A stretch of 64,000 nt of DNA, from assembly GCF_002252565.1 (NCBI RefSeq), contig NZ_NPML01000029.1:62001-126000 (forward strand), in the 5' to 3' direction. Below the pieces are notes generated by a model. It was not told the DNA's origin, did no database searches, and saw nothing but the letters and a program-made list of their open reading frames with translations. Of this stretch, positions 9,230 through 9,649 are shown one piece after another (the first letter of the stretch is position 1; each line of letters begins with the position of its first letter). The DNA is from Petroclostridium xylanilyticum (GTDB taxonomy: Bacteria > Bacillota > Clostridia > SK-Y3). Made by a program: the position numbers and the translations under genes.

Positions 9230-9250
9230 CACCCGAAAGGGTGTTTTTTT
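9230..9250 (+). terminator. Intrinsic terminator of gnd
   Basis: CACCC-GAAA-GGGTG forms a 5-bp stem with a GAAA tetraloop directly followed by seven T residues. It lies about 60 bases after the gnd stop. Confidence 0.88.
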
Positions 9251-9251
9251 G

Positions 9252-9280
9252 TTGCCTATATAAATAACACTAAATATATT
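9252..9280 (+). promoter_or_regulatory. Sigma-A-like promoter for the 9286-9467 RNA
   Basis: TTGCCT (9252-9257) and TATATT (9275-9280) are separated by exactly 17 bases. Predicted transcription start is near 9287, the first base of the outer stem of the structured RNA described next. Confidence 0.6.
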
Positions 9281-9285
9281 ACATT

Positions 9286-9467
9286 CATTGTCACGGGCAA
9301 GTAGCATCATGTATGGAATGTTGCAGCCGGAAAATCGCCATGGACGGTGATTTTAGGTTTATCCCGGCACGGATGCCGGTATAAGCCGACGGCAAAACAT
9401 GGAATACATGATGCTGCTTGTCCTCAATGTATCATTTCAGAACAATAGATGCGTGCTAACGCTTTTT
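9286..9467 (+). ncRNA. Candidate structured small RNA with GGA-loop hairpins
   Basis: No reading frame explains this stretch. An outer stem pairs 9295-9314 with 9404-9423 over 20 bp with only two non-Watson-Crick pairs, both G-U if the plus strand is transcribed; CATTG/CAATG (9286-9290, 9425-9429) extends it. Inside are two hairpins: 9331-9339/9346-9354 with loop ATGGAC, and 9364-9368/9375-9379 with loop ACGGAT. ATGGAA also occurs at 9313-9318 and 9399-9404. These ANGGAN motifs in loops are what CsrA/RsmE binds, so a CsrA sponge is one reading. A GCGT-GCTA-ACGC hairpin plus T5 at 9451-9467 could end the RNA. It could instead be a dispersed palindromic element. Confidence 0.6.
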
Positions 9468-9622: not shown

Positions 9623-9649
9623 TTAGCACTCACGAGCGGTGAGTGCTAA
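9623..9649. promoter_or_regulatory. CIRCE operator (HrcA binding site)
   Basis: TTAGCACTC, nine bases, then GAGTGCTAA: an exact match to the CIRCE inverted repeat bound by the heat-shock repressor HrcA. It lies 53 bases upstream of groES, so the chaperonin operon is under HrcA control; hrcA itself is not in the window. Confidence 0.97.

What the first reader, a model, noticed from the sequence alone, without database searches (positions are those of the whole stretch)
9252..9467. Free-standing structured RNA with ANGGAN loops between gnd and groESL
Sequence shows a full unit: promoter TTGCCT-17-TATATT, predicted start at 9287, a 20-bp closing stem whose only two irregular pairs are G-U on the plus strand (they would be A-C on the minus strand), two inner hairpins with loops ATGGAC and ACGGAT, two more ATGGAA motifs flanking them, and a small terminator. 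Known: CsrA/RsmE family proteins bind ANGGA in hairpin loops, and sponge RNAs carry several. Inference: a CsrA-sequestering RNA in a clostridium, where sponges are little known. Alternative: a dispersed palindromic repeat.
Basis: partly seen in the sequence, partly recalled or inferred. Interest (0 to 1): 0.75.

Follow-up and report, generated by a model that had tools for sequence, protein, structure and literature searches.

The report
Mobile repeat with CsrA-like RNA hairpins
The hairpin-rich stretch between gnd and groESL is one of about twenty scattered copies of a small mobile DNA palindrome whose conserved core looks like a landing site for the RNA-binding regulator CsrA, so it is probably not a dedicated regulatory RNA gene but part of a family of hopping elements found mainly in clostridia that have CsrA.

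Summary
The structure is real (fold z -6.75) and is Rfam RF01731 "TwoAYGGAY" (53.8 bits, cut-off 43). The "free-standing unit" fails: promoter-like sites are at chance level, five of six -35 bases lie outside the repeat, other copies do not share promoter or terminator, and the genome holds 20 copies of at least 100 bases plus about 20 fragments. Two kinds of flanks carry the same core; the window's kind is a MITE with ~28-bp terminal inverted repeats, its right end eroded. RF01731 occurs in 35 of 391 Clostridia genomes, usually multi-copy; in one complete genome it is the centre of a 285-bp element with 7-11-bp target duplications in 8 of 10 copies (0 of 90 mismatched flank pairs). CsrA remains attractive: csrA is present in 30 of 35 RF01731 genomes against 94 of 356 others (odds ratio 17; IS256 control 2.3). 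Against an RNA-level role: G-U and A-C changes in the stems are about equal, and orientation to genes is random outside this genome. Best reading: mobile palindromes carrying a probable CsrA ligand; movement is shown elsewhere in the family, binding is inferred.

The parts
9257..9284 (+). left terminal inverted repeat (TATATAAATAACACTAAATATATTACAT) of the type-A MITE; the supposed -10 (TATATT) lies in it
   Evidence: sharp left boundary of homology in 10 or more copies; inverted copy at the right end of intact copies L033, L034
9296..9314 (+). 5' arm of outer stem
   Evidence: 9 of 19 pairs show changes on both sides among genome copies
9315..9317 (+). 5' side of GGA/GGA internal loop (ATGGAA motif)
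9331..9354 (+). hairpin 1, loop AUGGAC 9340-9345
   Evidence: GGA intact in 14 of 16 aligned genome copies
9356..9387 (+). hairpin 2, hexaloop ACGGAU 9369-9374
   Evidence: GGA intact in 13 of 16 aligned genome copies
9401..9403 (+). 3' side of GGA/GGA internal loop (ATGGAA motif)
9404..9422 (+). 3' arm of outer stem
9426..9436 (+). eroded remnant of the right terminal inverted repeat (intact copies read ATGTAAYRTATTAAGTGTA...TATATAG)
   Evidence: comparison with L033, L034
9277..9438 (+). match to Rfam RF01731 TwoAYGGAY
   Evidence: 53.8 bits, gathering score 43

Best explanation
This is an insertion of a non-autonomous mobile element: a MITE-like DNA palindrome that carries the conserved TwoAYGGAY core, two adjacent hairpins with C-A-(N)-GGA-Y-G apical loops on one strand, closed by a long stem. 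It spreads as DNA through its terminal inverted repeats, by a transposase acting in trans. Movement is shown for the family in genome G042. In the window's genome it is inferred from copy number, sharp ends and terminal repeats. When an inserted copy is read into RNA on the GGA strand, by chance or read-through, the paired loops probably offer a binding site to the CsrA dimer. The copies together may act as scattered CsrA decoys, or the element may exploit CsrA to its own benefit. This second step is inferred. My confidence is about 0.93 for the mobile-repeat part and about 0.45 for CsrA binding.
For: Mobile: 41 BLAST matches in the genome, 20 of them spanning at least 100 bases at 84-100% identity. 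Two flank types share one core. Terminal inverted repeats, plus a coreless MITE with related ends. Multi-copy in most RF01731-positive Clostridia. G042: 285-bp element, about 11 near-full copies, terminal inverted repeats, target duplications of 7-11 bp in 8 of 10 copies; no mismatched flank pair of 90 reached 6. CsrA: co-occurrence with csrA 30/35 against 94/356, p 5.6e-12; high-quality genomes 25/27 against 84/291; IS256-transposase control odds ratio 2.3. Among GGA-loop hairpins of family representatives 54 of 77 read CAnGGAyG and 9 CAGGAyG, close to the SELEX consensus RUACARGGAUGU with hexaloops closed by AC/GU (PMC7652899). A fliW-csrA-flagellin locus in this genome. Stems covary: 42 both-side-changed cells against 13.9 in shuffles.
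Against: Against RNA-level selection: G-U and A-C events are about equal (115:101 in other genomes; 21:12 here without the window copy, p 0.16), and representative stems are almost all Watson-Crick, with 21 G-U and 14 A-C sandwiched pairs beside 2900 Watson-Crick pairs. GGA-strand orientation to neighbouring genes is random elsewhere (19:23). Five RF01731 genomes lack a csrA hit, three of them MAGs under 90% complete. The RF01731 model itself favours GGA loops, so loop conservation between genomes is partly a search effect. The co-occurrence test is not corrected for phylogeny. Stems of 9 bp or more are longer than most SELEX hairpins. No transposase was tied to these ends, and no direct target duplication was found for the type-A copies.
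Confidence: 0.5

Rival explanations
1. A dedicated CsrA-sponge sRNA gene, transcribed from 9287, that happens to have paralogues (first reader; family-level idea of Gardner and Eldai).
For: Loop motif, csrA co-occurrence, fliW-csrA in the genome; strong fold.
Against: No promoter or terminator beyond chance or shared by copies; dispersed copies with decaying loops and ends; G-U and A-C changes nearly equal.
Confidence: 0.1
2. A purely DNA-level palindromic element: the hairpins matter as cruciform or single-stranded DNA (for transposition, replication or arm-to-arm correction) and CsrA is irrelevant; the csrA association reflects shared ancestry or lifestyle.
For: Near-perfect Watson-Crick arms without a G-U excess; copy-specific near-perfect inverted arms in G115 and G312; random orientation; the control transposase is also weakly associated with csrA.
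Against: Odds ratio 17 with csrA against 2.3 for the control; loop sequence close to the CsrA consensus on one strand in both hairpins.
Confidence: 0.35
3. A cis-regulatory mRNA element (Rfam's type label 'Cis-reg').
For: In this genome 11 copies lie sense between co-directional genes and 2 antisense.
Against: 19 sense and 23 antisense in other genomes; the original description marks it 'cis-reg: n'.
Confidence: 0.05

Closest known systems
Rfam RF01731 TwoAYGGAY (Weinberg 2010; clan CL00106)
   Same: Sequence and structure match over the whole model (53.8 bits); two GGA-loop hairpins.
   Different: Described as a probable RNA, labelled Cis-reg in Rfam; here found to be the centre of dispersed, in one genome demonstrably transposed, elements.
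CsrB/RsmZ-type CsrA sponges
   Same: GGA in hairpin loops close to the CsrA consensus.
   Different: No dedicated promoter or terminator, only two apical sites, many dispersed copies, no RNA evidence.
MITEs
   Same: Short, no ORF, terminal inverted repeats, many intergenic copies, target duplications in G042.
   Different: The interior is a conserved structured module shared by elements with unrelated ends; the transposase is not identified.
REP/REPIN elements with RAYT transposases
   Same: Dispersed palindromes; Y1 transposase genes are present.
   Different: No copy close to a RAYT-like gene (nearest about 4.4 kb); size and terminal repeats differ.

Membership tests
RF01731 TwoAYGGAY | score above the curated gathering cut-off | tested here: met
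   53.8 against 43 bits
RF01731 TwoAYGGAY | two hairpins with AYGGAY loops | tested here: met
   AUGGAC and ACGGAU
RF01731 TwoAYGGAY | cis-regulatory position (Rfam type label) | tested here: not met
   random orientation in other genomes, 19:23; sense-biased only in this genome, 11:2
MITE | multiple dispersed copies without ORF | tested here: met
   no ORF of 60 aa or more listed over the element
MITE | terminal inverted repeats | tested here: met
   type A about 28 bp; right end of the window copy eroded
MITE | target-site duplication | tested here: inconclusive
   shown in G042; not found for type-A copies of this genome, TA-rich ends only
MITE | related autonomous transposon | tested here: inconclusive
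   an IS256-type transposase gene lies beside a similar 19-bp end at G000:C13:98783 (L094), but no shared element was shown
CsrA sponge sRNA | several GGA hairpin loops matching the CsrA consensus | tested here: met
CsrA sponge sRNA | own promoter and terminator | tested here: not met
CsrA sponge sRNA | host encodes CsrA | tested here: met
   fliW-csrA-flagellin locus L021
CsrA sponge sRNA | expressed RNA that binds CsrA | not testable with these tools
   needs RNA-seq and a binding assay
REP/REPIN-RAYT | REP palindromes adjacent to or mobilised by a RAYT gene | tested here: inconclusive
   RAYT-like genes exist, none adjacent to a copy; REP signature not examined

The most novel reading that the evidence does not exclude
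A clostridia-wide superfamily of mobile DNA palindromes, with unrelated ends but one shared two-hairpin module, that persists because the module binds CsrA in RNA: mobile CsrA decoys that would be a third mode of CsrA control besides sponge sRNAs and protein antagonists such as FliW.
Probability: 0.35. Interest if true: 0.85.

Novelty: new variant of a known kind. Interest (0 to 1): 0.6.

Why it matters
It re-reads a catalogued RNA family as a mobile element and gives the 2014 CsrA proposal a genome-wide test (30 of 35 carriers have csrA). If binding is confirmed, transposable elements would be spreading binding sites for a global regulator through clostridial genomes. If not, an Rfam family needs relabelling as a DNA repeat, and its near-perfect, sometimes copy-specific palindromic arms need explaining.

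Tried and rejected
Promoter and terminator of a free-standing gene: at chance level and not shared. G-U excess as proof of an RNA strand: not significant; a small tRNA control gave 21 G-U and 0 A-C, but the tRNA finder itself disfavours A-C. Direct target duplications for G000 type-A and coreless MITE copies: none beyond chance. Naming the organism by a 17-base pattern scan: the hits look like chance matches in unrelated taxa. Plasmid records: no match. RAYT mobilisation: no adjacency. A first automatic definition of the hairpins mis-called some loops and was replaced.

Full report
What is there. The stretch 9257-9436 folds into a nested palindrome: outer stem 9296-9314 with 9404-9422, a symmetric GGA/GGA internal loop, a short inner stem, and two hairpins with loops AUGGAC and ACGGAU. 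The fold is far better than shuffles (z -6.75). Rfam's only hit in the 64-kb window is RF01731 TwoAYGGAY at 9277-9438, 53.8 bits against a cut-off of 43.

What was known. Weinberg et al. 2010 list TwoAYGGAY as a probable RNA, 'cis-reg: n', from human gut, gammaproteobacteria and Clostridiales (PMC2864571). Gardner and Eldai 2014 proposed, from the loop motif, that it is a CsrA-binding sRNA of Clostridia and called validation work in progress (PMC4333381). I found no paper that ties the family to mobile elements, within an open-access library that lacks most subscription journals.

It is a dispersed repeat. A search of the window's own genome gives 41 matches, 20 of at least 100 bases at 84-100% identity; many of the rest are isolated ends or single hairpins. 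The copies come in two kinds. Type A, including the window copy, has terminal inverted repeats of about 28 bp; the window copy's right end is eroded. Type B has the same core but a different outer stem, and short TIR-like ends that I read by eye (TATGAAAATA...TATTTTCATC). A third, coreless MITE family with related ends is also present. The supposed promoter straddles the element's left boundary and is not shared; the supposed terminator is outside and not shared.

It is mobile elsewhere. In 391 Clostridia genomes RF01731 was found in 35, usually in several copies although at most seven candidates per genome were scored. In the complete genome G042 it is the centre of a 285-bp element with about eleven near-full copies and many partial ones. 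Terminal inverted repeats (CTGCAATTCGTAATAT) and target duplications of 7-11 bp flank 8 of 10 copies; none of 90 mismatched flank pairs reached 6. In other genomes the cores sit in palindromes with unrelated ends. For the window's genome, movement is inferred: no direct duplication was found beyond TA-rich ends.

Is CsrA involved? csrA is present in 30 of 35 RF01731 genomes and in 94 of 356 others (odds ratio 16.7, p 5.6e-12); among good-quality genomes 25 of 27 against 84 of 291; an IS256-type transposase as control gives 2.3. These p-values ignore phylogeny. All 12 carrier families also hold csrA in at least one member. Of the five carriers without a csrA hit, three are MAGs of 80-88% completeness and two are 95% and 98% complete. 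The loops read mostly CAnGGAyG or CAGGAyG (63 of 77 GGA hairpins), close to the SELEX consensus RUACARGGAUGU, whose hexaloops are closed by AC and GU (PMC7652899). The host has a fliW-csrA-flagellin locus; csrA is a Pfam hit, fliW and flagellin are my reading of the translations.

Is the structure kept as RNA? Copies within this genome show compensated changes in the outer stem (9 of 19 pairs; 42 cells in the whole structure against 13.9 in shuffles). But single-side changes do not clearly favour G-U over A-C as selection on an RNA strand would: 21:12 here (p 0.16), 115:101 elsewhere (p 0.38), and 21:14 in consensus or representative stems that are otherwise Watson-Crick. Orientation to neighbouring genes is sense-biased here (11:2) but random elsewhere (19:23; genes called by a simple ORF rule). 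Most individual copies therefore look like decaying insertions, not maintained RNA genes. That does not exclude CsrA binding by the active lineage, because changes after insertion would be neutral.

Verdict. A real structure and a known RNA-family match, re-read as part of a mobile palindromic repeat. CsrA remains the most likely partner of its loops when transcribed, at roughly even odds. G115 and G312 copies are flanked by copy-specific, near-perfect inverted arms, which I cannot explain; insertion into palindromes or arm-to-arm correction are both possible.

Noticed in passing
window 9623-9649: CIRCE-type inverted repeat TTAGCACTC-N9-GAGTGCTAA upstream of groES, the usual HrcA operator (read from the sequence; name from general knowledge).
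   Followed up: no
window 9230-9243: Good intrinsic terminator after gnd, read as such on both strands, which would limit read-through from gnd into the element.
   Followed up: no
L346-L351 and L101 (G115); L103, L352-L355 (G312): Conserved cores flanked by copy-specific, near-perfect inverted repeats (25-35 bp in G115; palindromic arms of up to about 300-360 bases in G312).
   Followed up: partly
L059-L063, L079-L090: A second MITE of the same genome, about 165 bp, TIR AACACTAAGTATGTTACAT / ATTACTAAGTACTTTACAT, roughly 14 copies, without the TwoAYGGAY core.
   Followed up: partly
L034 (G000:C2:214426-219678): Two type-A copies 3,089 bases apart with near-identical right flanks, suggesting a tandem duplication of about 3 kb.
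   Followed up: no
G000, e.g. L025-L029: Twelve Y1_Tnp matches, several 254-268 aa (RAYT-like), in the same genome.
   Followed up: no
L100, L252 (G201); L104, L266 (G089); L111 (G030); L113, L293 (G365): One hairpin carries an ACGAT loop instead of a GGA loop in several families, a recurrent variant that should not bind CsrA by the GGA rule.
   Followed up: no
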